Positions 8,637-38,340 of a DNA stretch of 64,000 bases are shown piece by piece. The stretch is from positions 54,176,997-54,240,996 of the forward strand of contig OW799237.1 of assembly GCA_941918925.1 (NCBI GenBank). Reading direction: 5' to 3'. Below the pieces are notes generated by a model that did no database searches, was not told the origin of the DNA, and saw only the letters and a program-made list of their open reading frames with translations. Made by a program: the position numbers and the translations under genes. This DNA is from Phyto melanocephala. Its lineage: Eukaryota; Arthropoda; Insecta; Diptera; Rhinophoridae. The stretch's first letter is position 1; every line of letters starts with the position of its first letter.

Positions 8637-8844
8637 TATTCCGTTTTAATATTAACTAAATCACTCTAATTCACAACTAAAAAGAATATAAATCAATCCT
8701 TTAACGCAATAATAGAAGTAAAAAAAAAAACGGCACTTTTGTGTTAGTATTCAACAACAGTAACAATTGCTTGTTTGTCGTATGTAGACTTTTGTCAACG
8801 TACTTTAATTGTTTTTCTTGAATAATTTTTTAAGTTAAAGTTAG

Positions 8845-22514: not shown

Positions 22515-22621
22515 TTAACAAGTAAGAGCACTATATTAGGCTGTGCCGAATCTTTTATACCCACCACCAATTTCGTGTACATTTAAAGCACAATATTTAT
22601 TATTTTGTTAATCATTATGGA
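22515..22621 (+). repeat. hairpin-headed dispersed repeat, copy D, left part
   Basis: The head AACAAGTAAGAGCACTATAT, GGCTGTGCCGAA and TTTTATACCCACCACC continues as in copy C up to TATGGAATAATC, where the Polinton is inserted. The remainder resumes at 36596. Confidence 0.75.
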
Positions 22622-22627
22622 ATAATC

Positions 22628-23276
22628 AGTAGTATATTTGTGGGCTTTCTGGGACACCAAATTCATCCTTATGGAGATTGCATGAGGATGAATTTTTGTT
22701 TTAAATTTTCATCCCAATGGTAATTTGCCATAAGGATGAATTTTTGTTAATAATTTAAAATATTCATCCCAATGGTAATTTCCATAAGGCTGATTTTTAA
22801 TTTTTGGTTGATATGCATTTTGTTATTGGTTTGTTTGTCTCAAGTTTCAATTAAAATTTTTTTATTGTCTGCAATTTACTCATACGGATGATTTTTTTGT
22901 TGTTAAAAATTTTTTTAAAATTGTGTTGTTAAAATTTTTTTTAAATTGTAATATGAGAAAATGCAAAGGTAAATTATTATTTGTAAATACATATATAAAT
23001 ACTTACATATATAAATATGTGTATACAAACTTACATGTTTTAGAAAATGTATGTGCAAAATTGTTTAAATAAGAATGTTAAGAGATGAATTTTCACAGAT
23101 GAATAATTTAAGAGAAAATAATTTTTATTGAATGTAATTATAGTTTTCCATAAAGATGAATTTTATTTTTTTAAAGATGAATAATTAAAGAGAAAATGAT
23201 CGTTTGAGTGATTTTTATTAAAACAGTAAAGAGGGATTGAATAAAAAAATATATGGAAATAAACTCAAGATATACT
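22628..23276. repeat. Polinton left terminal inverted repeat (649 bp)
   Basis: Reverse complement of 35947-36595. Inside, a unit of about 57 bp built on GGATGAATTTTTGTT, TTCATCCCAATGGTAATTT and CCATAAGG is tandemly duplicated (about 22685-22795). A further GAGATGAATTTTCACAGATG and AAGATGAATTTT are diverged relatives. Confidence 0.97.
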
Positions 23277-23442
23277 AAACCAACATTCTTAATTGATACA
23301 AAAATATATTAAAAAGTTACATGAGTATTTACATTCCTAATACTCAACCTATTTTTTAATTAGGTACCATTAAAAATTCCAAGAATGTATTAAAATGTCT
23401 TTAAAATTAAATTATTAATTGTTAAAAAGTTGCTAAGTTAAC

Positions 23443-23730
23443 ATGTCGAGAAATATAATTCTTAAATTTTTGGAAGACTTCAACGGATATATTTTTATTG
23501 AACACCTTTGTCTTATTAATAATTTTTTAAAATTAACACAGAGTTGTAAAGACACTGAGGAAATACCTGTGCATGGAAAACACGGTGTTCATTACAAAAA
23601 TTGTATTTGGGCAACGGATTCCACAACTGAGGGTCCTGACACATGCAGATGTATGATATACGGGCAGAAAAAAATTTTTATAGAGAATCTAATAAGGAGA
23701 TATTATTTATTGGAAAAACGTATAAAATAA
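23443..23730 (+). CDS. Polinton small protein, 95 residues, function unknown
   Basis: The first gene inside the left TIR, starting ATGTCGAG 167 bp past it. The product is basic and contains six Cys, the later ones in NCIW and TCRCMIYG. This could be a small metal-binding or disulphide protein, but no family is recognised. The C-terminus is Arg/Lys rich (LIRRYYLLEKRIK). A 3' AATAAA-type signal is not obvious nearby. It sits apart from the capsid block, in the terminal accessory zone where Polintons often carry lineage-specific genes. Confidence 0.55.
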   Translation: MSRNIILKFLEDFNGYIFIEHLCLINNFLKLTQSCKDTEEIPVHGKHGVHYKNCIWATDSTTEGPDTCRCMIYGQKKIFIENLIRRYYLLEKRIK

Positions 23731-24319
23731 CATTTTGTACATATATACAATAATTTAAACATAATTTGTGTTTCAGTTAATTAATTATTTATTCTACATT
23801 TTAAGTAAGCATTATTAATAAACAAAATTTTTCAAAACATAAAACAAAATCTTCTTTTTTCACGTATGTAGATGTGTATATGAAATACATTTGTTGTTTT
23901 GTCGTGTGCTATAGCTGAAATGAAATTTAACGCTTTAATTTTATGATAACAAAGTTTTTACATAAGACATTTGAAGTTTTATTATATTTTTTATTTCTTA
24001 AATTGCACTTTTAGTTGAAAAATAAGCTGAGTATATTTTTAAGTATTCTTGGAAGTTTTCCTGAAAGTTTATTGACTTTAAAATGTATTTTCTTTCAATT
24101 GTGTTAGACATAGTCATGATTATTTAAAAAATTGTAAGTTAACTAAAGAGACAAAATATGAAAGGTTGTTGACATTAGTAAACAAAATATTTACACTTTT
24201 GTTAGAATAGGTCAAGATTTTAGAATTTTGTATGAGTGTAAATTTTATGAATATGATAGAATTTTTCGTAACGTATTTAAACAATCAATCATTTTTAAAA
24301 AAACTGTGCAAGAAGCGAC
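23731..24319. other. Polinton intergenic, AT-rich
   Basis: About 590 bp without a convincing frame. It must contain the promoter of the 66-residue gene. No recognisable element beyond AT-rich DNA. Confidence 0.4.
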
Positions 24320-24520
24320 ATGGATTTTCTTAAAAAACCTAAGGAAAACGCTGTAAGCAAAAACAACCAAAACGGAGAAAGGACAATAGAAAAGGAAAGG
24401 ATACATATAGAGGAAGTGATCATCCTACCGCCAATAGACCTCCAACTATTCCTGGCATTATATGATGGGAATGACAACATTATTTTAAAAGCAGCGGAAA
24501 ATTTTGAAGCGAAAAAATAA
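24320..24520 (+). CDS. Polinton small acidic-helical protein, 66 residues, function unknown
   Basis: An ATG-initiated frame encoding a highly charged N-terminal half (Lys/Glu rich) and a hydrophobic segment IILPPIDLQLFLALYDG followed by a charged C-terminus. The DLQLFLAL core faintly echoes the DQILLALSL repeats of the zinc-finger protein at 34964. It converges with the protease gene across a 63-bp gap. No family recognised. Confidence 0.45.
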   Translation: MDFLKKPKENAVSKNNQNGERTIEKERIHIEEVIILPPIDLQLFLALYDGNDNIILKAAENFEAKK

Positions 24521-24583
24521 TCAACATCATTTTATTGTATTATTTGTTTATATATCTTTTTTTATTTTTATTTTCATAATTGT

Positions 24584-25036
24584 TTAAAAAAAAAAAATCT
24601 TAAATAACCTTAGTACTATTGTATCATTTTTATATAAGTTAAAATAATTAAAAATTCTTAATATTTGATTAAAAGATACATTTTTACTTCTTAAATAAAT
24701 AAAAATACAGCAGTATAAACCACATAAATTAGATGTTTCACTTTGAATTCGTCTTGTATTGCAGATGAAAGTTTTGGAATTTCTTCTTAAAAATGAAATG
24801 AATTGTTTAATAGGTGGTTGGCCAGCAGAGCAGAAGAATTCAGCTGCTTTATTTTTAGGAAAGTAAAATGCAACCCAATGCTGTCCAGGTTTATGTGATG
24901 GATCAGTGTTAGCAATATAAAAACATGGTTTTTTAACTGATTTTGTTGGTAATTTATTGCATGCATAAACACCTTTAAATTTACTCTTTGTTATATTGTT
25001 TGAATTCAAAGTATTTTTTATTGTAATTGCATTCAT
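24584..25036 (-). CDS. PRO: Polinton protease, adenain-like (C5-type) cysteine protease
   Basis: 150 residues, the family's usual size or slightly short. It would process capsid precursors during assembly. Visible landmarks: the catalytic His in GQHWVAFYF (about residue 53), the oxyanion-hole Gln in RRIQSE and the nucleophile Cys in NLCGLYCCIF. The residue that aligns with the acidic member of the triad, in the EFFxSxG motif, is Cys here (EFFCSAGQPP) instead of Asp/Glu. The start codon overlaps the stop of the major capsid gene as ATGA. The C-terminus is hydrophobic and Phe/Leu rich. The family call is firm; whether the enzyme is active is open. Confidence 0.9.
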   Translation of the reverse strand: MNAITIKNTLNSNNITKSKFKGVYACNKLPTKSVKKPCFYIANTDPSHKPGQHWVAFYFPKNKAAEFFCSAGQPPIKQFISFLRRNSKTFICNTRRIQSETSNLCGLYCCIFIYLRSKNVSFNQILRIFNYFNLYKNDTIVLRLFKIFFF

Positions 25037-26301
25037 AGCGTTTGAAAAATACTGCGAGACTTATCAATTTCTATTATGCTATCAAATTCACAATACACTA
25101 AACAGGTAATCGCTTCAGTAATTGGTTTTCCAAAACGTCCTTCAATGCGAATTGTCCCTTGATTTATTAAATTTCCACAGTTAGAGTTGTTATTATGATC
25201 AGGTGTTAAATCAAAAGCGAGCATAAAATATCCGTTATCAAAAAGTTCTTTAGTTATTTGATGACCTTTATCAAAATGATGAATTCCAGTTCCTTTAAAT
25301 AGTGTTTGATAACCACGGGTGCTTATAATTGTGCCATTATTATAGTTAAATTCAATTGGTTGTGCGGGAAATTGCACTCCATTAACAACCAAATTGAATC
25401 TTTGTAGGTTAAAATGTTGAAAGTTAAATGGATTTTCTTTTCTATCTCCTGTATAAGCTTTATTAGATACCATACCAAAAATTACAAAATTAGGTAGCTG
25501 TCCAAGTATAACATTATCTAAAGATAGCGAGTGGTTTCCAGGATGTATAGTAAATGTTTTTATTTCCACTCTCTTATATGGATATATTGCATTTTTTGAT
25601 TGCAACACGTTGTGATGTGCCATTAAAATATTATTATTGATAGCAAGATGATTTATGTATAAATTAGCTTCGTGTATTTTTAAATTACATTCATTTTTAT
25701 CTCCACCTTCTAAAATATAGAATTCGGGTTTCTCCAAATTTAGCGTTACCTTAATATCAACATTATTTAGCAAGTATTTTTGTTGATTAAACACATCTAC
25801 ATGAAGTTTTCCAAAAAGCTCTACTTTTTTTCCAATTTTAAATAATTTTCTTCTTTTATCTAATCCGGGGTTTTCTTTCTCAATTAATGAATTAATTTTA
25901 TTTGTATCAACTGCCCAACCACAAGATTCAAGATGTGTTGATGTTGCATCGTTTCCATAATTTAACAATGTTTCCATATATGCTCTATAGTGATAGTTAT
26001 TGTCAGGTTGGGATACATTTTTATTATTTAGATGAACTATACAGTTTCTAAATAATGAGTGTAAAAGGTTATTAACAACACTTCCGCTTCCTTTAAATTC
26101 AACGACTAGTCTAAGATAAATACTATTGAGATCTCTATAAGTTTCTCCATTTCCTAATGATACAAACTCAATAGTACTAGAATTATCCAAAGAAGCTATT
26201 GGGTTGTAGGATATTTCTTCAGTTTTAATGACACTGGTTTGAATTGGAGGAGCTTCAAATAAATCTAATTCACTTTTCATACATTCTATAAATCCAGACA
26301 T
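25033..26301 (-). CDS. MCP: Polinton major capsid protein, double jelly-roll (hexon-like)
   Basis: 422 residues. Recognised from the family-typical PYKRVEIKTFTIHPG and LGQLPNFVIFGMV region followed by a GDRKENPFNFQHFNL stretch, and from the C-terminal half with EFNYNNG and AFDLTPD. In Polintons and adintovirus-like elements this protein forms the pseudo-hexameric capsomers of an icosahedral capsid. The frame is uninterrupted. It overlaps the small basic protein gene upstream by 16 nt and the protease downstream by 4 nt, so the late genes are tightly packed. Shorter than many MCPs but covering both jelly-roll regions as far as can be judged by eye. Confidence 0.92.
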   Translation of the reverse strand: MSGFIECMKSELDLFEAPPIQTSVIKTEEISYNPIASLDNSSTIEFVSLGNGETYRDLNSIYLRLVVEFKGSGSVVNNLLHSLFRNCIVHLNNKNVSQPDNNYHYRAYMETLLNYGNDATSTHLESCGWAVDTNKINSLIEKENPGLDKRRKLFKIGKKVELFGKLHVDVFNQQKYLLNNVDIKVTLNLEKPEFYILEGGDKNECNLKIHEANLYINHLAINNNILMAHHNVLQSKNAIYPYKRVEIKTFTIHPGNHSLSLDNVILGQLPNFVIFGMVSNKAYTGDRKENPFNFQHFNLQRFNLVVNGVQFPAQPIEFNYNNGTIISTRGYQTLFKGTGIHHFDKGHQITKELFDNGYFMLAFDLTPDHNNNSNCGNLINQGTIRIEGRFGKPITEAITCLVYCEFDSIIEIDKSRSIFQTL

Positions 26302-26723
26302 TTCAAATTTCCAAAAATATCTTTAAAGTTCTTTCCTCTGCAACGTTTTAATTTATTCTGCGGTCTCTGTTTTAAACGTTTTAGTTTTATACGCTTCCCT
26401 TTGCCTCTTTGCATTGTTTTAATCTTGTCGATAGCAGCCTCTGTAATGTCATTCATGACTTTTCTTCCTTGATTTAATAAAATTTGTTTTACTGGTTTTG
26501 TTCCAATTTCCTCCAACATTTCTTTTCCAATATCTAATGATTTATTTTTTAAAATATGCAAACCTGTTTTCAATAAAGGTTTTAGATGGGAGAATAATGC
26601 TGAAAAAAGTGATCCAATACCACGACCATACTGTATAATTCTTGGTGTATGATATATTTCACCAATATTTTGTAAGTTATTTCCAGACTGATTATTATAA
26701 TAATTTGTATACATCACATCCAT
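26286..26723 (-). CDS. Polinton small basic virion-type protein (pX/pVI-like candidate)
   Basis: 145 residues. The N-terminal part is Tyr/Asn rich with IIQYGRGIGSLFSALFSHLKP, an amphipathic Gly-rich helix reminiscent of membrane-active minor capsid proteins of Polinton- and adenovirus-like agents. The middle is helical (KEMLEEIG, VMNDITEAAIDKI). The C-terminal third is strongly basic (KGKRIKLKRLKQR, KLKRCRGK), suitable for binding DNA. It lies immediately upstream of, and overlaps, the MCP gene, where Polintons carry such a gene. The role is inferred from composition and position. Confidence 0.65.
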   Translation of the reverse strand: MDVMYTNYYNNQSGNNLQNIGEIYHTPRIIQYGRGIGSLFSALFSHLKPLLKTGLHILKNKSLDIGKEMLEEIGTKPVKQILLNQGRKVMNDITEAAIDKIKTMQRGKGKRIKLKRLKQRPQNKLKRCRGKNFKDIFGNLKCLDL

Positions 26724-26763
26724 GGTTGTAATAAAAATGATTTATCTTTCTATTACATAATCA

Positions 26764-27669
26764 TTATATACGTTTCTTTTTAAAGTGTAAAGTGCAATAA
26801 ACTGGAATATATTCTAACAACTCCATTACTTTCCCTTCATCATTTCGAATCATTATTGAAATATCATTAATATTAAAAGTTTCGATTGGAAAATATTCAA
26901 TACGGCTAAAATGAATATAATTTTTTAATGTCGATATTGAAAATATTTTTAAACATTTCGTTTTTTTACTTCCTACGTATCGAGGTTTAATTATATCAGT
27001 GTAAATAAATACGATTTCATCTATTCCAGTGGATTCATTTTTATTAATAAAGTTGTTTATATTGGTAGGCAAATCATTTAAAGATTTATCTAAAATATAT
27101 TTTTTTGACGATAAAATAGAATCTTTTCTATTAGCTTCAAACTCTTGATCAATAGTTTGAGCATTTTGTTTGATATTTGAGCTACCTTTATTTTCGTTTC
27201 TTTTTATATTTGAATTTCTTTTATTGTCACCTTTCTTTTCTTCGAATGGTGTTATAGTTTTTAGAATATTATCATCCACATTATTTAAACGTTTTGAAAT
27301 TTTATAACCATTCTCTAAATTTGTTTTTGTTTGCTCGTTTGTTTTATTCATAAGTTCTTTAAATTTCAATTTAATACTTTCATGATTAATATTAACATCC
27401 GGATTTGGTGTTTTTAATATTTCATAATCTAAAGGTTGGTTTAACACATTTCGTTTTTTACGTTTTATAACATTTTCATTATCTTCTTTTTTTGTTTTAT
27501 TCATTAATGAAAAAGAAATATCTGATAATCCAACTACCCATTTATCGTTTAGGTATAAAGATTGCTTTAGCAAATTTGTAAAAGTGCTTGAAGAGTTTTT
27601 ATAAATATCTGTTGAATCATTACTTAATAAAGTAACATAAAGATCACTTTCTTCCATACTTGAAGCCAT
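26764..27669 (-). CDS. Polinton minor capsid (penton-type, PY-like) protein
   Basis: 301 residues from the ATG at 27669 (an upstream in-frame TTG is not a likely start). The N-terminus has YVTLLSNDSTDIY, then LNDKWVVGLSDISF. The C-terminal part has DEIVFIYTDIIKPRYVG, IEYFPIETFNINDISIMI and a final YCTLHFKKKR. These blocks match the single-jelly-roll penton-type protein that closes capsid vertices in Polintons. Between them, about residues 60-205, lies a Lys/Asn/Glu-rich low-complexity linker, which looks like an expansion. The gene sits between the small basic protein and the integrase, in the same orientation. Confidence 0.85.
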   Translation of the reverse strand: MASSMEESDLYVTLLSNDSTDIYKNSSSTFTNLLKQSLYLNDKWVVGLSDISFSLMNKTKKEDNENVIKRKKRNVLNQPLDYEILKTPNPDVNINHESIKLKFKELMNKTNEQTKTNLENGYKISKRLNNVDDNILKTITPFEEKKGDNKRNSNIKRNENKGSSNIKQNAQTIDQEFEANRKDSILSSKKYILDKSLNDLPTNINNFINKNESTGIDEIVFIYTDIIKPRYVGSKKTKCLKIFSISTLKNYIHFSRIEYFPIETFNINDISIMIRNDEGKVMELLEYIPVYCTLHFKKKRI

Positions 27670-27729
27670 CTTCAAAAGAAATAATTGAAGTTAGTCGTTG
27701 TTTGCTATACATATATGATTAAAATTGGG

Positions 27730-28656
27730 TTATTCGCCTATGTCGGTTTGATGAATCCATGAATTATGTTCCTTTCCGAAACCTAGCCATTTTACAAACA
27801 GCTTTTTTCCACGACGTTTCAACACTTTTTCTACTAAATAAACGTTGGGAACTTTAGTTTTTAATAATTCTTCTTCATAAAATCCACCTTTTATTATATT
27901 TCCCTTAAGATCTTTAAGTTGATATGTTATTGGATTTGTTACAAAACTTTTATTTATTTGAAAAACTTCTGAAGACCAATTTGGTGTATATCCTTTCTCA
28001 AAAACATTTTTATATTTGCTTATGCGAACAAAATCATTTGTCTTATATTTTCCTCTTTTAAATATTTTTAAGTTATTGTATATAGTTCTAAGAAGCCTTT
28101 TTTCATTTTTCTTGTTAACAGAGTTGGGTCTCATTTTAATAGTACGGTGATAAGATGAATTATACTCTTGCAATAATTTATCTAATATATTTATCCACTT
28201 ATAATTTCCTTGCATACTGAATTGTTTCCACATTTTAGTTTTTAAAGTTCTGTTAAAACGCTCAACTACAGATGCCTTCATATTTGAAAAAGTGTGATAA
28301 TGATTAATATTAAGTTTTTTCATTAGACTTTTAAAGTCTTTATTATAAAATTCTGTTCCTTGATCAGAATGAAGATTTTTGGGAGATTTTTGTTCGTTCA
28401 ACTTTATAATATTTTTAAATGCTTTTGAAATCTCTGTTCCTGTTTTAGATTTCAGTGGTGCAGCATACGCATACTTTGAGAATACATCTATTACAGTAAG
28501 CATATACTTGAAACCTTTATTAAATTTTGAATATGGAATCATCTCCACTAAATCTATTTGCCATGTATCTAGAATCCCCTTCTGAATAAATCGTCGACGT
28601 TTAAAGTTTTTTCTTGCTTGACGATGAAGTTCATTAACAAGAGTTTGTTTACTCAT
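27730..28656 (-). CDS. INT: Polinton integrase, retroviral type with chromodomain
   Basis: 308 residues. The rve core runs from WQIDLVEMIPYSKFN (first Asp, about residue 34) through TVIDVFSKYAYAAPLKSK and HSDQGTEFYN (second Asp, about residue 98) to ASVVERFNRTLK (Glu, about residue 132). By my count 33 residues lie between the last two. The C-terminus is a chromodomain: YLVEKVLKRRGKKLFVKW ending in SWIHQTDI. A complete N-terminal HHCC finger is not visible, only a basic RKNFKRRRF segment. This enzyme would join the element's AG ends to 6-bp staggered target DNA. The frame is intact and it is divergently arranged with the ATPase. Confidence 0.95.
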   Translation of the reverse strand: MSKQTLVNELHRQARKNFKRRRFIQKGILDTWQIDLVEMIPYSKFNKGFKYMLTVIDVFSKYAYAAPLKSKTGTEISKAFKNIIKLNEQKSPKNLHSDQGTEFYNKDFKSLMKKLNINHYHTFSNMKASVVERFNRTLKTKMWKQFSMQGNYKWINILDKLLQEYNSSYHRTIKMRPNSVNKKNEKRLLRTIYNNLKIFKRGKYKTNDFVRISKYKNVFEKGYTPNWSSEVFQINKSFVTNPITYQLKDLKGNIIKGGFYEEELLKTKVPNVYLVEKVLKRRGKKLFVKWLGFGKEHNSWIHQTDIGE

Positions 28657-28715
28657 ATTTATTTAAGGAATGTAAAGCTTCGATTCATTTACGTGTTGTG
28701 TATGAATGTGTAAAC
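28657..28715. promoter_or_regulatory. shared divergent promoter region, integrase/ATPase
   Basis: Only 59 bp separate the two divergent start codons (28656 minus, 28716 plus), so transcription starts of both genes must lie here or inside the neighbouring coding sequences. No TATA box is evident. Confidence 0.4.
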
Positions 28716-29384
28716 ATGTTTCAACAGTTTATATATCCATTTACAATGATGGTGTGTGGTCCTTCAGGTTGTGGGAAATCTACATTTATTAAAAATTTGA
28801 TTGAAAATCAACACTTAATATCTAAAGGCATTGATCGAATTGTATGGTGTTTTTCTGAAAAAAATTCACTACCATTAATAAAAAATGTTCAGTTTATTAA
28901 AGGAATTCCAGAAACTTTTAGTACTAATGATAAAGAATCAACTTTAATAATATTGGATGATTTAATGCTTGAATCGTCAAATAAAAAAGTTTGTGAACTC
29001 TTCACTAAGGGGTCACATCATAGAAATTTAGCTGTAATTTTAGTAACACAAAACATTTTCCATAAAGGCGCTTATTCAAGAGATATTTCTTTAAACTCTA
29101 AATATATAGTAATGTTTAAGAATCCAAGGGATAAGTTACAATTTCATCATTTGGCTCGTCAAGTATATCCCGAAAATTCAAAAGCTTTGGTTGATGTATA
29201 TAATAAATGCACTCAACATGCTCATGGTTATTTATTAATTGATCTTACACAACAAATACACAACGCATTAAGATTCAGATCTGATATATTCAATAATACT
29301 CACTATTCAATATTTGCAAATATAAACAATGACTTCCAATCTAAAATTGTTGAGGGAGAACAAACATATTCTTTATGTTCTTAA
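28716..29384 (+). CDS. ATP: Polinton genome-packaging ATPase (FtsK-HerA/A32-like)
   Basis: 222 residues from the ATG at 28716. An upstream in-frame GTG at 28698 would add six residues but is not a eukaryotic start. Walker A is GPSGCGKST (about residues 14-22), Walker B is LIILDDLM (about 75-82), and the following polar strand is VILVTQN. It would pump element DNA into preformed capsids. The frame is open; the C-terminal 56 nt overlap the next gene in another frame. Length agrees with the family. Confidence 0.95.
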   Translation: MFQQFIYPFTMMVCGPSGCGKSTFIKNLIENQHLISKGIDRIVWCFSEKNSLPLIKNVQFIKGIPETFSTNDKESTLIILDDLMLESSNKKVCELFTKGSHHRNLAVILVTQNIFHKGAYSRDISLNSKYIVMFKNPRDKLQFHHLARQVYPENSKALVDVYNKCTQHAHGYLLIDLTQQIHNALRFRSDIFNNTHYSIFANINNDFQSKIVEGEQTYSLCS

Positions 29385-29673
29385 AAAAGCGAAGCCCAAA
29401 CTACGTAATGCAATTTTAAAATATGTTGATGATGTTGCTATTAAAGCTATACATGAAATACTTTTCAATGTTATTAAAAAAAATCATAAAATAAACAAAA
29501 CAGTTTTTGAAAAATTAAAACCATATAAAAATGCGATTAGAAAAGTTTGTTCACCACAAACCTCTATGAAACAAAAGAGGAAACATCTTATTCAAAAGGG
29601 AGGATTCTTACCAATTATTATTTCTTCAGTATTAAGTGGAGTTATTGGAAAAATTTTGGAAAATGTCAAATAA
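29329..29673 (+). CDS. Polinton small conserved basic protein, hydrophobic C-terminus
   Basis: 114 residues. The layout is KAKPKLRNAILKY near the N-terminus, a helical middle, then KQKRKHLIQKGGFLPIIISSV and a Gly-containing hydrophobic tail. Small genes with the KPK-R-AI-K and LIQ-GGF pattern occur next to the ATPase in many animal Polintons. The function is not established; a virion or core role is plausible. It overlaps both neighbours (56 nt with the ATPase, 11 nt with the next gene), suggesting shared transcripts. Confidence 0.75.
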   Translation: MTSNLKLLRENKHILYVLKKAKPKLRNAILKYVDDVAIKAIHEILFNVIKKNHKINKTVFEKLKPYKNAIRKVCSPQTSMKQKRKHLIQKGGFLPIIISSVLSGVIGKILENVK

Positions 29674-30268
29674 TTTATCTAAACTAATAGTTATACAGCC
29701 ATCAGTTTATGAGAAGTTTATAAACAAAAATTCTGATTCCACCTTTTTGCATCGAAAGCTTTTACCACTATATGCTTCACACACGTTAAAAGATATTAAC
29801 AAATGGTATTATATTAAGCAAGAATTAGCGAAATATTTAATTGAAAAACAAAAATCATCAAATCAGATCATAAGTTCTAAATATAACAATTTACGTGATA
29901 ATGAAACTCAGACAAGAAAAACATACAAAAAGCATATTGAAACTCAAACAATGCAATCAAAGCAAAGTAGTGTTGGAACACAATGTAATATAAACTTGCC
30001 AGAGGATATTTATACTTACGATCACGATGATCAAATTGATATGGATACAACAGTACAAAAAATAAATCCTTCTTCTGCATCTTCAGTAGGCAAACGACTA
30101 AAAAATTTTTCAAATAGTGGAACACCAAAAATTAGAATATTATCAAAGGAAGAAAATCATACAAAATTGAAGCAATCAACTTTACCGTATCAGTATTCCC
30201 CACGAGTAACTAGAAATCGTAAAAAGTTAGATTATGAAACTGAAAATGTACAATGGCAAAATATTTAG
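29663..30268 (+). CDS. Polinton accessory protein, 201 residues, Thr/Gln/Ser-rich
   Basis: The start at 29663 (MSNNLSKLIVIQP) is chosen because it overlaps the previous stop by 11 nt and leaves the more typical N-terminus; an upstream Met nine residues earlier is possible. The N-terminal 60 residues have HRKLLPLYASHTLKDINKW and ELAKYLIE, like proteins found after the GGF-containing gene in other Polintons. The rest is hydrophilic with NETQTRK, IETQTMQ and VGTQCN, three spaced TQ-containing repeats resembling light-chain (LC8) binding motifs, and a basic C-terminus. AATAAA at 30271-30276 lies just after the stop. Confidence 0.65.
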   Translation: MSNNLSKLIVIQPSVYEKFINKNSDSTFLHRKLLPLYASHTLKDINKWYYIKQELAKYLIEKQKSSNQIISSKYNNLRDNETQTRKTYKKHIETQTMQSKQSSVGTQCNINLPEDIYTYDHDDQIDMDTTVQKINPSSASSVGKRLKNFSNSGTPKIRILSKEENHTKLKQSTLPYQYSPRVTRNRKKLDYETENVQWQNI

Positions 30269-30431
30269 AAAATAAAACACATTTAATAATTGAAAATATA
30301 AAGTTTGTTTATTATTGATAAAAAAATATAATTTCTTAAAATAAATAATTGCAATAGTTATAGTTTGTTTACATAAAAGTTTAATGTATTTAGAATTAAT
30401 ATACAACAATTATTATGGAATTTTGTATATT
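30269..30431. terminator. convergent 3' region with polyadenylation signals
   Basis: The 163 bp between the converging accessory gene and the polymerase gene holds AATAAA on the plus strand (30271-30276) and on the minus strand (TTTATT at about 30307-30312). Confidence 0.55.
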
Positions 30432-33400
30432 TTAATATTCTATTTCCATTAGAAATTTATCTAAACTATCATCATTATTAAAGCTCTCTATAATATAATT
30501 TTGATCTACAAATTCTACTTCATTATCATTTATTTTACAGATATCTTTATCATTATTATATTCTATATCCATTAAATAATAATCATCACTATCATTATTA
30601 ATAAATTTTTCTTTATAGTGACCCCAAGCTAGGGTATTAATGTTATTCACACATATAAATCTTTTATTATCTAAATAGCTTAAGGATATCTTGTTAATAA
30701 GGGATGTATATACAGTGTGTAGTTTTGATTTAAAAATATACATATTTCTATAGTAAATTTTTTTATTATATAAGCAATTTTTGTAGTCAGAAAGACTTAG
30801 TTTTTTTGTTACGTTCACTTTGACACCCTTAGCTTTTTTAACTTCTTCCATATTTTCTGTTTTAAACGAATACATTTTCGCTCTCAACCCAACAAACTCT
30901 TTCATTATCTTCCCAAAATTTTCATCTTTCATCATACCTAAGACCTTTTTGTTTTTTTGTGGAATATGAAATTGATTATTAGCCTCATATTCAGATGTGT
31001 CAAACCTATCTTCAATATCTTTTTTAATGTCTTCATAAAAGTCATCCGTTTCTATTGTGTATATAAATGAATCTGTATCCATATAATTAAGTTCAACTTT
31101 AGTTTTATATTTAGGTATCATATATTCATAATGGAAATCATACATCTTCCATTTTGAAAGTTCTAAAATTGTAAAACCTAAATAAATTGGCTTATTATAG
31201 TATGAGTAAGTTCTATTTAATTCAACCGCGATCATATTTTCTTCAAATATATTACAAGAATTAAATTCTGGCTTAGCAATGAGGGCACGTGCTCCAAGTT
31301 TTTTACCAATACTTTCCCATTTATTCACAATTTTAATATCTTTACGTTTATCAACGTTTTCCATTGTTTTACCGTAAACAGCATTGTTTAATAATTTAAA
31401 AAAATTTTTTTCAAATGAGTTTTTCGCATTAGTTCTATGAAAGTTATTCAAGGAAATATATTTCTTTAACCAATTGGATTGTCGAAACTTTAATATTCTA
31501 TGAATTTTGGCTAACTTTAAACCATGTTTTAAACATTGCTGCAAATTTTTATAATGAATTATATATTCATATTTATTATGTAGATCAACAATCAATTTTG
31601 TTTCTTTTGACTCGGGAGGTTTTTTATTTTCACAACAGAATGGTAGATTATTATGAATGTCATGGATTTCAACTGGATATATCAGATCAACTTCTAATAT
31701 ATATCCAACACTTGAATCAGTGGGAATTGAGTTCAAAGAAAAATTATTAATATCTTCTACCCACTCAAAATTACCCTCAGGCAGAGCTTCTGACATTGCC
31801 CAACCATATAAATTGTTTGCATCTAAATACATTAAGTATTTAGAAGGTAATTCATTATTATAGTCTGATAAATATTTATTATTTGCAATTGAATGTCTTT
31901 TTGTACATTGTACTATTCCTCCCCTAATCCCCCTTTGAATAAATGTTATCATGTCTTTATCAGTAAGTAAATCTAATTTAATATCCGTTATTTTTAGCAT
32001 GGCATCCCATGAAAGTCCCGGAGCTGTGTAATAGTGACATGGATCTAATTGATAAATGTTTTTACAAACTGTTCTGAAATTCTCAAAAACATCTGCTAAT
32101 AATAAAACATCCGTCTTTAAGTACAACATTAAATAATCTTCTAAGTTTTTGCAATCGAAAGTTTTCCAAACTTCTTTCGCGTGTGTGTAATCTTCTAGAG
32201 AACATTGTGTATCTGTTAACTTATTATAAAAATCTGCAATATTAGGTAAACTATTTTCCAAAAGCTTTTCAATAGAATTTAAATAATTATAAGGAAATAC
32301 GCCTTTTCTTATAAGTAAATTTAATTTACTTTCATCATTATACATAGATTTAACAGTCTTTAAATCTCTTTTTTCTAAATTTTTCACAAGATTGTCTAAA
32401 CTGGATGGCATGAATCTATATGAGTCAAGAAATCTTATTTCAATGTTATTATCTTCAATTTTTACTGTTTTTGATAACGATATATAGAGTTCTTTATTTA
32501 AGGGGATAATATTAATTGAACCATCGTCAATTTTGTTCAACTCCTTAACAAATAAATGACAATCGTAAGATGAAAAGTTATGGAAAATAACGGGGAAAAA
32601 CTTTGGAGTTTTATAATTGATATTACATGAGTTATGTGCTGGCCCCCTATATTTTCCACTGAAATGACAGTGATCTCTTACTTTAACTTCATTTACAATA
32701 ATTTTAGAGCAAATATGACAAATGTCATTTCTATCGAAATCAAGTTTTTCCAGTTCAGTTAAGGGTGTCATTGTTTTACTTTTTGAGATGAAATTTAAAT
32801 ATAAATATTTAACATCATTCACCAGACTTTCTATAAATAATTTTGGTGACTCTAATCCCTTAAAACTGCAAAATTTGTTTAAACTATTACTAAAACTACA
32901 TTTTATATAATAAGCAAATGCATATGGAATATGTCTATCAACTAAAGTCGTTGATGAAATATCCCCTTTCGGAATGCATGTTTGAATATTTTCAAATATG
33001 CACTCCGAATCTGCATATATAACAAACGGTAAGTCTAACTTATTGCTAAAATTGTTAAATTCTAAAACAGACTTATCTGGGCTTGGGACGTATGATATTC
33101 TTTTTGTGCAATTCTTCTGGTGTTTCTGAAGTTTCACTTTTTGATGAAAATACTGTAAACAATCATCACATACAAAAATACTTTCATGATGTCTTGTTTG
33201 TTGAGATTTAATAAGTCTGCAAAAATTAGAATATAAATATATAAGTTTAACATATAAACTAAATAGAAAGAAATGTAGTACAAGATAAAAATAGCAATTT
33301 AAAGTAATTTTATGCACTTTTACTAACCTTGAAATATTTTTAATCCACACATAATGTGAAACAACATCCTCTCCAATACATTTTTGAAGAAATAGAATGT

Positions 33401-34286
33401 TGATGTGCTTAATTTTTTTCGCTTTTGTTTTATAATAGGGACCCAATACTAAGTCTGCTTTTTCATCATAGCCAAAAACATTTATACTAATATTATGATT
33501 GTTGCTTTCAAATATTTTTATATCTTTAATTTTTAGCGGGAAGCTTAATCCGTTGAAATTTAAACTGTAACCATTTATATTTATAATATTAAAACTGATA
33601 TTTACTTTATATTTAAAAGTGCGCTCTGCATGTGTTTTTAAATCTGAAATGGCTGATATTATGCACCATTTGAAACAAAATTCATCATTATTTTGTACAT
33701 TTATGCAGGCCTTTTTTAATGTTAATTTTTTCGGTAACGGAATGTATGATGTTCCTCTTAATGGTTGATGTTTATTTAAGTTGACTTCAATTTTAATGAG
33801 TTGTATAAGAGTCCAACCACTGTCCTTTTCCTGAAATTCCTCCATTTTCTGTAAAATATTTTGAGTTTTTCTCTCAAATAGATCATCAAACTCCTCCATG
33901 TTGAAAATTTCCTTCATTTTTGTTTGGAAGGTTTTCACTTCCAATGGAGTGTCTTCTAAGGTATCCATGTTAGGCTTGGCGTACAAGGCATAAAACTCCA
34001 TATTAAATTTCAGGGCATTATGTATTTTTAAAAATTTATTAACCTCCTGCTTAATTGGTGCGCAAGCCTCTTTCATAAATAGCTCTGGTAAGAGGCATTC
34101 TTCTTTTTTATTGTCATAAGATAGAGTTAGCAATCTAGATTTAAAGGCACTTCTAATTATCTTCACATCTAATGGAGATTTTTTAGAAACCACTCCTTTT
34201 GAACAAGATGCATGAGTCCTCTCATGCCTTTTAAGACTTTCGATATCACTAAAAATTGTTTTACATTCATAACACACAAAAGCCAT
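30432..34286 (-). CDS. POLB: Polinton protein-primed DNA polymerase B, one intron
   Basis: Unspliced frame of 1284 codons; removing the intron at 33217-33327 gives about 1247 residues. N-terminal C2H2 finger FVCYECKTIF...KRHERTH (residues 3-24) and a second one after the intron (CDDCLQYF...KHQKNC). Exo I is YADSECIF; an endonuclease VII-like Cys/His block CHIC...DHCHFSGKYRG follows, then Exo II FSSYDCH and Exo III YLKTDVLLLADVF. Polymerase motif A is YLDANNLYGWA, motif B is KLLNNAVYGKT and motif C is YMDTDSFIY, with GLRAKMY downstream. All catalytic Asp residues are present. It would copy the linear element from terminal protein primers. Confidence 0.96.
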   Translation of the reverse strand: MAFVCYECKTIFSDIESLKRHERTHASCSKGVVSKKSPLDVKIIRSAFKSRLLTLSYDNKKEECLLPELFMKEACAPIKQEVNKFLKIHNALKFNMEFYALYAKPNMDTLEDTPLEVKTFQTKMKEIFNMEEFDDLFERKTQNILQKMEEFQEKDSGWTLIQLIKIEVNLNKHQPLRGTSYIPLPKKLTLKKACINVQNNDEFCFKWCIISAISDLKTHAERTFKYKVNISFNIININGYSLNFNGLSFPLKIKDIKIFESNNHNISINVFGYDEKADLVLGPYYKTKAKKIKHINILFLQKCIGEDVVSHYVWIKNISRLVKVHKITLNCYFYLVLHFFLFSLYVKLIYLYSNFCRLIKSQQTRHHESIFVCDDCLQYFHQKVKLQKHQKNCTKRISYVPSPDKSVLEFNNFSNKLDLPFVIYADSECIFENIQTCIPKGDISSTTLVDRHIPYAFAYYIKCSFSNSLNKFCSFKGLESPKLFIESLVNDVKYLYLNFISKSKTMTPLTELEKLDFDRNDICHICSKIIVNEVKVRDHCHFSGKYRGPAHNSCNINYKTPKFFPVIFHNFSSYDCHLFVKELNKIDDGSINIIPLNKELYISLSKTVKIEDNNIEIRFLDSYRFMPSSLDNLVKNLEKRDLKTVKSMYNDESKLNLLIRKGVFPYNYLNSIEKLLENSLPNIADFYNKLTDTQCSLEDYTHAKEVWKTFDCKNLEDYLMLYLKTDVLLLADVFENFRTVCKNIYQLDPCHYYTAPGLSWDAMLKITDIKLDLLTDKDMITFIQRGIRGGIVQCTKRHSIANNKYLSDYNNELPSKYLMYLDANNLYGWAMSEALPEGNFEWVEDINNFSLNSIPTDSSVGYILEVDLIYPVEIHDIHNNLPFCCENKKPPESKETKLIVDLHNKYEYIIHYKNLQQCLKHGLKLAKIHRILKFRQSNWLKKYISLNNFHRTNAKNSFEKNFFKLLNNAVYGKTMENVDKRKDIKIVNKWESIGKKLGARALIAKPEFNSCNIFEENMIAVELNRTYSYYNKPIYLGFTILELSKWKMYDFHYEYMIPKYKTKVELNYMDTDSFIYTIETDDFYEDIKKDIEDRFDTSEYEANNQFHIPQKNKKVLGMMKDENFGKIMKEFVGLRAKMYSFKTENMEEVKKAKGVKVNVTKKLSLSDYKNCLYNKKIYYRNMYIFKSKLHTVYTSLINKISLSYLDNKRFICVNNINTLAWGHYKEKFINNDSDDYYLMDIEYNNDKDICKINDNEVEFVDQNYIIESFNNDDSLDKFLMEIEY
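33217..33327 (-). other. 111-bp frame-neutral intron in the polymerase gene
   Basis: Read on the minus strand: exon ...TTTCAAG, then GTTAGTAAAAG at the 5' site, a pyrimidine-rich TCTAATTTTTGCAG at the 3' site, then ACTTATTAAATC. The length is a multiple of three with no stop, so an unspliced reading inserts 37 mostly hydrophobic residues between KNIS and LIKSQQT, where the family is continuous. Confidence 0.85.
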
Positions 34287-34613
34287 TTTTATTTTAAGTT
34301 TTTCTTATTTTATTTAAAGAAGTTTAACAATTTGTTAACTTAATTTTAAATTACAGTTTATATTATTTGTTTTAGATTTACACACAAAATCTTTAATTTT
34401 TATACAGACAAATTGACCGATTACTTTAGTGAACAATACTATGAATTGCACTGGCTATTGCTTTTACTTATTTAAATATTAAATTCATATTTGGTTAGCT
34501 TTGTTCAAGGTCATTTTGAAATGTGTACTGTTGTTCTTTAAATTATTACATAATTATGCTTTTTAGTTTGTTGACTCTAATTATAAAATTCTTATGTCTA
34601 TATATGTATGTAC

Positions 34614-34660
<47 letters not shown>

Positions 34661-34963
34661 TATATGTTAAATTCAAAGTTAAATTTACCTGAAATTAAAG
34701 TGGCGTTTTTATCGGATTCTATTTCAAAATATGCTTGGTTTATCATTTTTGAACTCAAATCAAATTGTTCGAAAAATATGAGGTGTTCTAATATATATAC
34801 ATAAAATTCTTATACAATATTATATATGTATGTATGCTAAAATCAAAGGCAATTTTAAAATTAAATTCAACGACTTCCTGGGATTATATTTCAAAATATG
34901 CTTTGTTTAAAATTATGAGGCTTTCTCAATAAATATTTTGAAAATAATTTTTAATTTAGAAAA
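34287..34963. promoter_or_regulatory. divergent upstream region with (TA)n microsatellite
   Basis: 677 bp between the divergent polymerase and zinc-finger genes. About 34600-34665 is a (TA)n run of some 40 bp. Two diverged copies of AAATTCAAAG...ATTTCAAAATATGCTT (34670-34735 and 34845-34905) look like an old tandem duplication. Confidence 0.5.
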
Positions 34964-35413
34964 ATGGACTCAAAGTTAAAGTGCGAGTTTTGTCGCTATG
35001 TTTCTTTTTTAAATGTCGCAAACAAAAAAAGACATTTTTTAAATTTTCATAATTTTGCCTTTAAAAAGGCTAAAAGTTACAAAAAAATAAAACCATCCTC
35101 ATATATAACAGATATATCAGGATGGCTACCAACAACATCACCCACATCAACAGCAGAACAATCAACAACATCATCAACTGCAATATCAGGATGGCTACCA
35201 ACAACATCATCCACATCAACAGCAGAACAATCAACAACATCATCAACTGCAGTGTCATCATCATATGAGCAATATATGGATGAGGATGGTGACCAAATCT
35301 TATTAGCCTTAAGTTTAGATTCAACAACATTATCAGCTGCACCACCATCATATGAGCAATATATGGATGAGGATGGTGACCAAATCTTATTAGCCTTAAG
35401 TTTAGATTTTTAA
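34964..35413 (+). CDS. Polinton C2H2 zinc-finger protein with duplicated acidic tail
   Basis: 149 residues. One C2H2 finger (CEFCRYVSF...KKRHFLNFH, residues 7-29) and a basic stretch, then two copies of a 23-residue Ser/Thr-rich unit beginning ISGWLPTTS. Next come two copies of YEQYMDEDGDQILLALSLD, the second at the extreme C-terminus. The DNA is duplicated as well. The acidic-hydrophobic tail resembles a transcription-activation or ubiquitin-interacting (UIM-like) motif, although the usual Ser four residues after the Ala is Asp or Phe. The gene lies in the accessory zone near the right TIR. Function is unknown; a DNA-binding regulator or host-interaction factor is a guess. Confidence 0.7.
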   Translation: MDSKLKCEFCRYVSFLNVANKKRHFLNFHNFAFKKAKSYKKIKPSSYITDISGWLPTTSPTSTAEQSTTSSTAISGWLPTTSSTSTAEQSTTSSTAVSSSYEQYMDEDGDQILLALSLDSTTLSAAPPSYEQYMDEDGDQILLALSLDF

Positions 35414-35510
35414 GAAACAAAGAATAAAACAAATGATTTAATATTTTTAAATTAAAAAAATGTATTTTTATTTATTTACTTTATGGTAGAGGTTTTTAAC
35501 ATTTAAATTC

Positions 35511-35813
35511 TTAATTGTAGTTTAATTCAAATACTGCTAAACCATTTGCTGATTGTCGCCCTTTGTAAATAATTGTCCACACTTTATCATTCATTTCAGA
35601 TAAGTATGGATCTTCTTTATTTAAAAATTTTGTAATTCTTTGAGGAAGATAAAACCATTTATTATTATCCAAATATGCTATGACTTTTGATCCATATTGT
35701 GATTCCTTCCACTCAAACCTTAGGACTTTATATGGTTGATGTAGGGGGATATCATCAATTTTTGTATACTGAGGTATTAAACCTTGGGCAATATTTATTA
35801 TTTGATCATACAT
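35511..35813 (-). CDS. Polinton 100-residue protein, beta-rich, possible OB-fold
   Basis: The last gene before the right TIR, transcribed inward from 35813. PLHQPYKVLRFEWKESQYG, then KVIAYLDNNKWFYLPQRI and WTIIYKGRQ suggest a string of beta strands as in an OB-fold. Similar small proteins with a YG-x5-LD...LP-R pattern are, to my recollection, common in insect mobile elements, but I cannot name the family. A single-strand DNA-binding role would suit a protein-primed replicon. Speculative. Confidence 0.55.
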   Translation of the reverse strand: MYDQIINIAQGLIPQYTKIDDIPLHQPYKVLRFEWKESQYGSKVIAYLDNNKWFYLPQRITKFLNKEDPYLSEMNDKVWTIIYKGRQSANGLAVFELNYN

Positions 35814-35946
35814 CTAAAATATTTTAAATAAAATTAGAAAAAACTTCTAAATATGATGCGATTTCTTACCATTTTATTAAGCATACTTTTAAGTATTGAT
35901 TAGACTAATGAGGAAAAATATTATCATTATCGTTCTTTTATATATA

Positions 35947-36595
35947 AGTATATCTTGAGTTTATTTCCATATATTTTTTTATTCAATCCCTCTTTACTGT
36001 TTTAATAAAAATCACTCAAACGATCATTTTCTCTTTAATTATTCATCTTTAAAAAAATAAAATTCATCTTTATGGAAAACTATAATTACATTCAATAAAA
36101 ATTATTTTCTCTTAAATTATTCATCTGTGAAAATTCATCTCTTAACATTCTTATTTAAACAATTTTGCACATACATTTTCTAAAACATGTAAGTTTGTAT
36201 ACACATATTTATATATGTAAGTATTTATATATGTATTTACAAATAATAATTTACCTTTGCATTTTCTCATATTACAATTTAAAAAAAATTTTAACAACAC
36301 AATTTTAAAAAAATTTTTAACAACAAAAAAATCATCCGTATGAGTAAATTGCAGACAATAAAAAAATTTTAATTGAAACTTGAGACAAACAAACCAATAA
36401 CAAAATGCATATCAACCAAAAATTAAAAATCAGCCTTATGGAAATTACCATTGGGATGAATATTTTAAATTATTAACAAAAATTCATCCTTATGGCAAAT
36501 TACCATTGGGATGAAAATTTAAAACAAAAATTCATCCTCATGCAATCTCCATAAGGATGAATTTGGTGTCCCAGAAAGCCCACAAATATACTACT
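35947..36595. repeat. Polinton right terminal inverted repeat (649 bp)
   Basis: Reverse complement of 22628-23276 over the full length, with no mismatch found by eye. It ends CAAATATACTACT followed by the target duplication ATAATC at 36596-36601. Confidence 0.97.
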
Positions 36596-38340
36596 ATAAT
36601 CTCTTTATAATAAAATATGTATCACTTTCTTTGTACAGGGTGATTAAATTTTAAGGGCCCATGTTGAAGATGAACTACACCTAGTCTTTAAATTTGTTTT
36701 CTGCATTTCACTTGACATTTCTCAATCTCAAACTTACTCAATTTGATCCGTGGAAAGATACTCAAATGAGCAACGCTTTAAAGTTGTTCAGGTTTTTTAT
36801 AAAAATAGGCGTTCAAATCAAAATGCATTTTGTGCACTTCGTAATTCTTTTGTTCAACATAATCGTTCAAATTCGTCCACAATCGGGAGAATTGTAAAAA
36901 ATATTAAAATTTCTTCAAAACAGGTCTATATAAAATGTTAGAAAATCTGTGAATGCCTTCTTAGTTCGTTGAATGGGATCCACTGCTGGTTTTTGAGATA
37001 GTGTGGCAAAAGAGCAGTCAACCTCGCCTCATCATCATGCCCAACAATTGAGCATCAACATTGTCATTGAAAATTTGGACCATCAGATAGAGGTGGGGCG
37101 CCAAGGATGGGGGGCCATTTGGCCGATATTTTGTTAAATACATAATTGAACCATACAAATATTATAATTACAAAAAGAAATAATAATAACATCCTAAATA
37201 ATTTGTGTTCTATTTAAATTCAACATCGGTCTTTAAAATTTAACCACCCTTTAAAACTTCGATATGCTTCTAAAGTGCTTTTGTAAATGTAGTCTTTCAA
37301 TGAAAGTGGGCGTTAAAGTAGGCGTGTCAATAAAGTTTCTGCTAATAAATACAACTTAGATATTTCAATATAGTCCTTTATTTTCCCAAAAACTTTGTCA
37401 ATAGAGAAATTACATGAATTTAAGATAAACCGTTATATGGGAGGTAGGCGTTAAAGTGGGTGTGTCACCTAAATTTTTTGGAACAACAATAACATTGATT
37501 AAAAGGATATACGTAGCAAATTTTATCATCATACCTCTAATTTTGGCGGTTTTATGAGCTTTTAAATTTCATTAACGGTAGATAACGTGAAAAGTGGGTG
37601 TTATAGTAGGCGTGTAAAAGTTGTTTTTGCGAATGAGTACAACTTAGGTGTTTCAATATAGCCCTTTGTTATTCCAAAATCTTTATTAATAGAGAAATTA
37701 TATGAATTTTAGGTAAAACGTTATATGGGAGGTGGGCGTAAAAGTGGCCGTGGCACATTGATTTTCCGTTACAAAAAAGCGTCTCACCAAAAAGCAAAGT
37801 GCAAAATTTCAGAGTCGTACATGCAATTTTGTTGCTTTTATGACGTTCTTGTTTTTAAATATAGCGAAAAATACACTGTGCGGTATAAATTTTTTGTACA
37901 TTTTGATCGATAACTCCTCTCCTAATCCATAGATAATAATTTAGATAATTTTCGGGGAAAAATATTGTTTTTACATATATATTCGAAGTTTCATGAGTCT
38001 ACGTTAATGCGTTTGGACACAATTCCATTTTATTCGATGTTCGAAGGACACGGTTTTTTCGACCTACTCTTGCTTTTCGAGCTATAACTCTCTTCCTGAT
38101 ATTCCGATTTAGCCCATTTGCAATACCAAACAAACCTTGTCTATAAGAAAGATTCTGTGCGACCTCTATCGTGCTTTCAACAGACGGATAGACGGGCATA
38201 GCTAGATCGTCATCAAATCAAACCCTGATTCAGAATACATATACCTTATGGGGTCTAAAATGGATATTTCGATGTGTTACAAACGGAAGGACAAAATGAA
38301 TATACCCCCACCATTTCTTTGGTGGCGGGTATAAAAAAAA
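36596..38340 (+). repeat. hairpin-headed dispersed repeat, copy D, right part
   Basis: Continues copy D after the Polinton: CACTTTCTTTGTA, then (after the mariner MITE at 36644-37252) CTTCGATATGCTTCTAAAGT and the repeated phrases seen in copy C (GTGGGCGTTAAAGTAGGCG, ACCGTTATATGGGAGGT, GGCGTGTAAAAGTTG). It ends with GGTGGCGGGTATAA at 38321-38335. Non-coding. Confidence 0.75.
36644..37252 (+). mobile_element. internally deleted mariner element
   Basis: Ends CAGGGTGATTAAATTTTAA and TTTAAAATTTAACCACCCT are inverted, with TA on either side. A plus-strand frame encodes an N-terminal helix-turn-helix transposase piece (MERYSNEQRFKVVQ, FYKNRRSNQNAF) and, after a large deletion, a C-terminal GHLADILFNT-like end in another frame. 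It belongs to the same family as the fragments at 59955 and 61364. It inserted within repeat D. Confidence 0.7.

What the first reader, a model, noticed from the sequence alone, without database searches (positions are those of the whole stretch)
22628..36595. Structurally intact, apparently young Polinton/Maverick
Both 649-bp TIRs match over their full length by eye, the 6-bp duplication ATAATC is exact, the AG...CT termini are intact, and polymerase, integrase, ATPase, protease, major and minor capsid frames are all open. The surrounding elements are almost all decayed, so this copy is much younger than its neighbourhood. It is a candidate for a still mobile or virion-forming element in a fly.
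Basis: partly seen in the sequence, partly recalled or inferred. Interest (0 to 1): 0.88.

Follow-up and report, generated by a model that had tools for sequence, protein, structure and literature searches.

The report
Recently multiplied virus-like transposon in fly
The stretch is an intact, recently inserted copy of a virus-like jumping element (a Polinton) that has lately spread to dozens of places in what is probably a fly's genome, leaving behind mirror-image defective copies that also moved, which makes this animal a good place to ask whether such elements still replicate like viruses.

Summary
The two 649-bp TIRs are identical, the 6-bp duplication ATAATC is exact, and the joined flanks align through the junction with two other copies of the host repeat. 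Core genes are open: PolB, integrase, ATPase, protease, double-jelly-roll MCP, putative penton. PolB carries a probable in-frame 111-nt intron.

The host genome (740 Mb) settles the larger question: this is one copy of a very recent burst. 54 of 100 listed MCP matches tie with the window's protein. 39 of 71 open-MCP matches also have open integrase and PolB (second part) in register. Of 49 ordinary identical-MCP copies, 38 showed both ends, 37 of these with exact 6-bp duplications. Against a second subfamily MCP dN/dS is 0.05-0.06.

The unexpected part: some integrated copies are fold-back palindromes without PolB. One has its own 6-bp duplication; another design sits at two unrelated loci, each with its own. 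They look like adenovirus-type defective genomes moved in trans. My one search for such Polintons listed none. Virions, expression and present-day mobility are untested.

The parts
22628..36595 (+). Polinton/Maverick copy, 13,968 bp
   Evidence: TIRs, TSD, gene content
22622..22627 (.). target-site duplication ATAATC, left
36596..36601 (.). target-site duplication ATAATC, right
22628..23276 (+). left terminal inverted repeat, 649 bp, begins AGTAGTATAT
35947..36595 (-). right terminal inverted repeat, 649 bp, 100% identical
22659..22743 (+). subterminal imperfect inverted repeat (mirrored at 36480-36564)
   Evidence: DNA fold of 22628-22760 z -5.2 against shuffles
24584..25036 (-). adenain-type cysteine protease, 150 aa (His53, Cys69, Gln98, Cys105)
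   Evidence: Pfam PF00770 E 5e-7; PDB 6lj9 E 2e-6
25033..26301 (-). major capsid protein, 422 aa, double jelly roll
   Evidence: 977 homologues at E <= 0.001; model pLDDT 88 matches PBCV-1, Sputnik and mavirus capsid proteins
26286..26723 (-). small protein p145 between putative penton and MCP genes
   Evidence: open frame, dN/dS 0.26-0.28
26764..27669 (-). putative penton (minor capsid) protein, 301 aa
   Evidence: position one gene from MCP as in PMC4028283; 19 genomic matches tie with it and 33 tie at a 99% type, all 52 without stops; no penton match in Pfam
27730..28656 (-). RVE integrase with C-terminal chromodomain-like segment, 308 aa
   Evidence: PF00665 E 3e-16; PF00385 E 0.0019, below cut-off
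28716..29384 (+). A32-like packaging ATPase, 222 aa
   Evidence: PF04665 E 1.4e-6
29329..29673 (+). small protein p114
   Evidence: dN/dS 0.08
29663..30268 (+). protein p201, function unknown
   Evidence: dN/dS 0.24
30432..34286 (-). family B DNA polymerase (protein-primed type), frame of 1284 aa including a probable intron
   Evidence: motifs; alignment; 48 of 49 listed genomic matches of the second part without stops
33217..33327 (-). probable 111-nt in-frame intron of polB (GTTAGT...TTTTGCAG)
34964..35413 (+). 149-aa frame with two in-frame tandem duplications; C2H2-like start by eye
35511..35813 (-). 100-aa open frame
   Evidence: codon score above its five other frames; no Pfam match
22508..22627 (+). 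left part of the host repeat that was the target
36602..36640 (+). right part of the same host repeat

Best explanation
22628-36595 is an intact, recently integrated Polinton, one member of a family that has just spread through this genome and is probably still mobile. Proposed cycle: a genomic copy is expressed; PolB copies it as linear DNA, primed by a protein at the AGTAGT ends (inferred); the integrase inserts the linear product with a 6-bp duplication (the duplications are shown). During copying the polymerase sometimes folds back or switches template, giving palindromic or end-swapped molecules that keep two good ends but lose polB. These are integrated too, with enzymes supplied by complete copies (duplications and polB loss shown, process inferred). 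The packaging and capsid genes are kept by purifying selection, so a packaged stage probably matters in the long run (inferred).
For: Own genome: matches tied with the window's own protein number 54 of 100 for MCP, 48 of 128 for integrase, 32 of 49 for the second part of PolB, 48 of 49 without stops, and 62 of 154 for ATPase. 39 of 71 open-MCP matches also have open integrase and PolB second part in register, on C1-C6. Exact 6-bp duplications in 37 of 38 two-ended copies. TIRs identical in 12 of 39 pairs; left and right TIRs of one copy are more alike than between copies, 0 of 2000 permutations. 39 sisters tie over 1 kb of non-coding DNA (the 40 best of 164 candidates). Fold-back copies: P1 with TATATA on both sides, P3 with TATATC, P4 with ACTGTG, each with different host flanks on its two sides; P3 and P4 outer arms 99.9-100% identical with no flank similarity found. 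dN/dS against the second subfamily: MCP 0.05-0.06, protease 0.11, ATPase 0.12-0.16, integrase 0.15-0.16. MCP fold.
Against: No expression, polymorphism, extrachromosomal DNA or particle data were available. One assembly was examined. Copy counts come from the best-scored candidates, so they are lower bounds and biased to the youngest; the same lists also hold older, broken copies (for example MCP at 76% with 14 stops). Two loci with different duplications each show one TAA in the putative penton with equal scores (C1:166515653, C5:99024768; that it is the same stop was not checked), so capsid-defective copies may also spread; then the capsid is either supplied in trans or not needed for moving within a genome. 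Penton dN/dS is only 0.42-0.44. Fold-back P2 has no matching duplication (AAAAAA/TTTGTG). No terminal-protein gene was identified. Protease copies were not counted (search did not complete).
Confidence: 0.82

Rival explanations
1. The copies arose through repeated infection of the germ line by an exogenous polintovirus, not through jumping within the genome.
For: Capsid genes under purifying selection; several co-existing lineages, including a second subfamily with 97% MCP, 79-80% penton and a strongly diverged PolB; capsid relatives at 89-94% in unnamed contigs.
Against: Copies without polB (fold-backs) also spread, which needs helpers in the same nucleus; Pfam recognised no envelope or fusion gene among the 13 frames scanned; PMC8097293 (2021) says particles had not been observed.
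Confidence: 0.3
2. The many copies are segmental duplications or assembly duplicates, not independent insertions.
For: One copy, C1:59235052, shares its right flank with C5:47091763 and lacks a duplication.
Against: 37 of 38 two-ended copies have exact 6-bp duplications; in the 16 letters printed on each side I see no other shared flank; no similarity was found between P3 and P4 flanks.
Confidence: 0.03
3. The palindromes are sequencing or assembly fold-back artefacts, or inverted duplications made after insertion by host repair.
For: Near-identical arms are what a fold-back artefact gives; P2 lacks a duplication.
Against: P1, P3 and P4 have different host DNA on the two sides and a shared 6-bp duplication, which neither process would be expected to make; the same asymmetric centre (27352 joined to 29803) occurs at two loci in opposite orientation.
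Confidence: 0.07
4. A young but already silenced burst: the family was active within about the last hundred thousand years and is now shut off, for example by piRNAs.
For: 83 substitutions in 39 TIR pairs, about 0.34%, suggest about 0.10-0.15 My at recalled Drosophila rates; the window copy has private changes.
Against: 12 of 39 TIR pairs are identical and 39 sisters tie over 1 kb, so some insertions are very recent.
Confidence: 0.25

Closest known systems
Polinton/Maverick elements (polintoviruses); capsid assignment in PMC4028283 (abstract and passages seen)
   Same: PolB, RVE integrase, packaging ATPase, protease, double-jelly-roll MCP, putative penton one gene from MCP, TIRs, 6-bp duplication
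   Different: Very recent burst with 39 copies having three core genes open in register; mobilised fold-back derivatives
Intact vertebrate Mavericks, PMC8097293 (abstract and passages seen)
   Same: Intact copies with TIRs and 6-bp duplications; purifying selection on core genes
   Different: There 134 intact elements in 17 species, at most 38 in one genome by a stricter test (all genes), and intronless; here a fly, a probable polB intron, and palindromic derivatives
Drosophila-associated adintoviruses 1-3, PMC8363768 (passages seen)
   Same: 13.3-14.6 kb contigs; number 1 is described with PolB, integrase, capsid, protease and FtsK homologues; the authors think 1 and 2 may be integrated in other Drosophila species
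   Different: Those are contigs from pooled flies; here chromosomal copies with known ends and flanks
Polinton PolB genes of Lucilia and Calliphora
   Same: Nearest named relatives, up to 74% identical in PolB
   Different: Separate lineages; hosts differ
Adenovirus defective genomes in incomplete particles (Daniell 1976, seen only as a reference in PMC5033970; inverted-end structure recalled)
   Same: One end duplicated in inverted orientation; protein-primed replication
   Different: Here integrated with target-site duplications and, for P3/P4, found at two loci

Membership tests
Polinton/Maverick | Family B DNA polymerase of the protein-primed type with intact motifs | tested here: met
   Exo I-III and Pol A-C motifs present; alignment. 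Protein priming itself not testable here
Polinton/Maverick | Retroviral-type (RVE) integrase, often with chromodomain | tested here: met
   PF00665 E 3e-16; chromodomain E 0.0019, below Pfam cut-off
Polinton/Maverick | A32/FtsK-type packaging ATPase | tested here: met
   PF04665 above cut-off
Polinton/Maverick | Adenovirus-type cysteine protease | tested here: met
   PF00770 above cut-off, PDB 6lj9 and 1avp; Cys in place of the triad acid, shared by 12 of 30 relatives
Polinton/Maverick | Double-jelly-roll major capsid protein | tested here: met
   Model pLDDT 88; top PDB matches PBCV-1, Sputnik, mavirus
Polinton/Maverick | Single-jelly-roll penton protein | tested here: inconclusive
   Position fits; no penton match in Pfam; no model made
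Polinton/Maverick | Long TIRs starting 5'-AG and a 6-bp target-site duplication | tested here: met
   37 of 38 other two-ended copies
Polinton/Maverick | Terminal protein on the 5' ends of linear DNA | not testable with these tools
   Only indirect: AGTAGT terminal repeat and fold-back derivatives
Virus (virion-forming polintovirus) | Particles containing the element | not testable with these tools
   No particle or read data
Defective-interfering genomes | Palindromic or deleted genomes that keep both ends, lose replication genes and are multiplied in trans | tested here: met
   P1, P3, P4 structure and duplications; no polB in P3 and P4 as fetched, nor in the fetched parts of P1. Multiplication in trans is inferred from P3 and P4 at two loci
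Defective-interfering genomes | Interference with the complete genome | not testable with these tools
   Needs an experiment

The most novel reading that the evidence does not exclude
This fly carries a living polintovirus that replicates as protein-primed linear DNA in its germ line, still forms particles, and has acquired heritable defective-genome parasites: fold-back palindromes without a polymerase that ride on the complete copies, are integrated beside them and may be packaged, because they keep two copies of an end region.
Probability: 0.3. Interest if true: 0.95.

Novelty: new variant of a known kind. Interest (0 to 1): 0.8.

Why it matters
Whether Polintons are living viruses has been open since their capsid genes were recognised; the abstract of PMC8097293 (2021) states that their particles had not been observed. 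A genome with 39 copies that keep three core genes open, most of them near-identical, makes expression, linear DNA, empty sites and particles directly testable in one animal. The fold-back derivatives are a genomic record of how the element is copied, favouring linear, template-switching replication, and suggest that Polintons have their own defective parasites.

Tried and rejected
Protease Cys at the acid position as a sign of decay: rejected, since 12 of 30 relatives share it. Polymerase read as one continuous protein: thought unlikely, since 106 of the 120 PolB relatives in the file lack the 37 residues and 9 of 120 align only from residue 357 or later; 2 of 120 (P0138, P0233) have other insertions and 3 of 120 were not classed. 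Small frames p53, p61 and p82 as genes: rejected by codon score. Relatives in IMG/VR: MCP searches found none and PolB one distant contig, L001; no other gene of this element was found in the 13.6 kb held of it. Relatives in prokaryote genome contigs: none. Other Polinton remnants in the window: none by blastn of the element or tblastn of its frames. C4:14866-14881 kb: two inverted hybrid-end copies about 100 nt apart, left unexplained. Protease copy number in the own genome: not completed. Papers: nine of ten searches used.
Full report
Observation. The two terminal repeats, 22628-23276 and 35947-36595, agree in 649 of 649 letters and stop agreeing at the next letter. They begin AGTAGTATAT and are flanked on both sides by ATAATC. 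Joining the flanks with one ATAATC gives a sequence that aligns through the junction with two other copies of the same host repeat, at 1325-1490 and 10710-10858. The insertion is therefore exact and its target is known.

Genes. Left module, minus strand: protease, MCP, p145, putative penton, integrase. Middle, plus strand: ATPase, p114, p201. Then polB on the minus strand and two small frames. Pfam supports protease, integrase and ATPase. PolB keeps all six motifs. The MCP model (pLDDT 88, 62 sequences) matches PBCV-1 VP54, Sputnik and mavirus capsid proteins. The penton is assigned by position, one gene from MCP, as described in PMC4028283 (passages), and by a recalled pattern. The polB frame contains 37 residues missing from 106 of the 120 relatives in the file. 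At DNA level this is GTTAGT...TTTTGCAG, 111 nt, and leaving it out gives the usual protein context; it is probably an intron that lacks stops by chance (probability 0.06). The protease has Cys69 where adenain has Glu; 12 of 30 relatives have Cys and 18 have Asp, with His53 kept in all 30.

Surroundings. The neighbourhood is mostly older. A gypsy-like element has terminal-repeat pieces 89% and 94% alike, and its gag, RT, integrase and envelope pieces lie in several separate frames. One exception is a 678-bp pair at 3805-4482 and 8167-8842 that is 98.8% alike.

The family in the genome. The window lies at C5:54176997-54240996 of a 740-Mb assembly in 9 contigs. The TIR search scored 40 of 416 candidates; all 40 give full-length matches, and 14 tie at the top score, two of them the window's own; the other 39 of its 79 matches are short self-similar pieces inside TIRs. 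Below, 'tied' means equal to the window's own top score. MCP: 100 matches, 99 of 229 candidates scored, 54 tied. In my tally of the 85 rows that are full or nearly full length (1-422 or 1-417), 54 are tied, 17 near-identical and open, 10 belong to a 96-97% subfamily (B), and 4 have stops; the remaining 15 rows are partial or decayed. Integrase: 128 matches, 128 of 2903 candidates scored, 48 tied. PolB second part: 49 of 503 candidates scored, 32 tied, 48 without stops. Putative penton: 131 matches, 19 tied and 33 tied at a 99% type. ATPase: 154 matches, 62 tied. Protease: the search did not complete. 39 of the 71 tied or near-identical open MCP matches also have an open integrase and an open PolB second part in register within 60 nt, on C1-C6. 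These counts are lower bounds, since only the best candidates were scored.

Independent insertions. I fetched both expected ends of the 49 identical-MCP copies left after setting aside the window (one) and two palindromes (four MCP matches). 38 showed both ends; 8 showed one and 3 none in the fetched stretch. 37 of 38 have an exact 6-bp duplication. The exception, C1:59235052, shares its right flank with C5:47091763; otherwise I see no shared flank in the 16 letters printed on each side.

Age. TIR pairs are identical in 12 of 39 (window included); the 39 pairs hold 83 substitutions. With recalled Drosophila rates of 0.011-0.016 per site per My this is about 0.10-0.15 My on average, and at most 0.14-0.21 My for the window copy. 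Two cautions. TIRs of one copy resemble each other more than TIRs of different copies (mean 2.97 against 7.51 differences, 0 of 2000 permutations), and length variants mostly go together, so TIRs are homogenised when copied. And the window copy differs from its best-scoring sisters by about two changes in 1,000 non-coding bases and one in 527 (scores 1804 against 1795, and 951 against 947), so it is young but not the youngest.

Selection. Against two copies of subfamily B, dN/dS is 0.050 and 0.059 for MCP, 0.106 and 0.113 for protease, 0.124 and 0.155 for ATPase, 0.161 and 0.153 for integrase, 0.081 for p114, 0.28 and 0.26 for p145, 0.24 for p201, and 0.42 and 0.44 for the putative penton, with no stops. 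dS runs from 0.05 (integrase) to 0.24 (MCP), and PolB of a third B copy is saturated (dN 0.35), so the lineages are probably mosaics.

Fold-back derivatives. Inverted pairs of MCP matches led to palindromic copies. P1, C1:85942207-85955917, runs 22628 to 29466 and back from 29546 to 22628, sharing 7 letters at the turn, with TATATA on both sides and different flanks; the central parts of its arms are 99.97% identical. Two stretches of about 2.8 kb of P1 were not fetched; MCP and left-end matches lie in them. P3 (C1:55198269-55210647, TATATC) and P4 (C1:132566436-132578816, ACTGTG) share one design: both ends are 36595-35219, joined to 23708, with a turn between 27352 and 29803 that shares 10 letters. 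They lie in opposite orientation at two loci, with outer arms 99.9-100% identical and no flank similarity found. P2 (C5:52995605-53008505) is more complex, keeps two pieces of polB and has no matching duplication. P5, P6 and P7 are further fold-backs whose duplications were not established; P7 has left-type sequence at both ends, its outermost 200 nt on one side not fetched. No polB match lies in P3, in P4 or in the fetched parts of P1, so these must be copied with a polymerase from elsewhere. Five MCP matches at 92-93% with the same count of stops in the matched frame (2 TGA, 4 TAA), and two loci with one penton TAA each at equal scores (positions not compared), also hint that defective copies moved.

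Mechanism. Shown: exact ends, 6-bp duplications, many independent insertions, conserved genes, and palindromes that integrated as units. Inferred: linear extrachromosomal DNA, protein priming at AGTAGT, fold-back and template switching as the source of palindromes and end swaps, help in trans, and a particle stage. The palindromes resemble adenovirus defective genomes as I recall them (Daniell 1976 seen only as a reference in PMC5033970).

Known or new. The element meets every tested defining feature of Polintons except that the penton test was inconclusive. Intact Polintons are known: 134 in vertebrates, at most 38 in one genome (PMC8097293, passages), and three adintovirus contigs from Drosophila samples (PMC8363768, passages). 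My searches listed no paper whose title or abstract start describes palindromic mobilised Polintons or a comparable burst in a fly. Only asked for palindromes. The library lacks most subscription papers, and most listed papers were seen only as listings.

Host. Nearest named PolB relatives are blowflies (Lucilia, Calliphora; up to 74% identity). A brachyceran, perhaps calyptrate, fly is an inference; the assembly carries no name.

Noticed in passing
P0128, P0130, P0132, P0134, P0138, P0153: Six long blowfly proteins (Cochliomyia, Calliphora vicina, Lucilia cuprina; 1085-1192 aa) next to this PolB clade have substituted catalytic residues in exonuclease I and polymerase motif A, and five of six also in motif C. 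Long gene models with dead active sites in three genera suggest a domesticated Polinton polymerase gene.
   Followed up: partly
G000, integrase matches at 61-62% identity: A second Polinton family in the same genome: 31 further integrase matches listed, 28 of them without stops, on C1-C6; a lower bound.
   Followed up: no
protease residue 69, window 24584-25036: Adenain-type proteases related to this one split into those with Asp (18 of 30 relatives) and those with Cys (12 of 30) at the triad acid position; catalysis with Cys there would be unusual.
   Followed up: partly
G000:C4:14871300-14876800 (L025): Two near-identical hybrid-end subfamily-B copies face each other across about 100 nt.
   Followed up: partly
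G000:C1:59235052 and C5:47091763: Two copies share the same right flank but not the left one; ectopic exchange or an assembly join.
   Followed up: no
window 3805-4482 and 8167-8842: A 678-bp direct repeat pair, 98.8% identical, younger than most of the neighbourhood.
   Followed up: no
window 34964-35413: Frame with a C2H2-like start and two in-frame tandem duplications (69 and 87 nt units), possibly a fast-changing regulatory protein.
   Followed up: no
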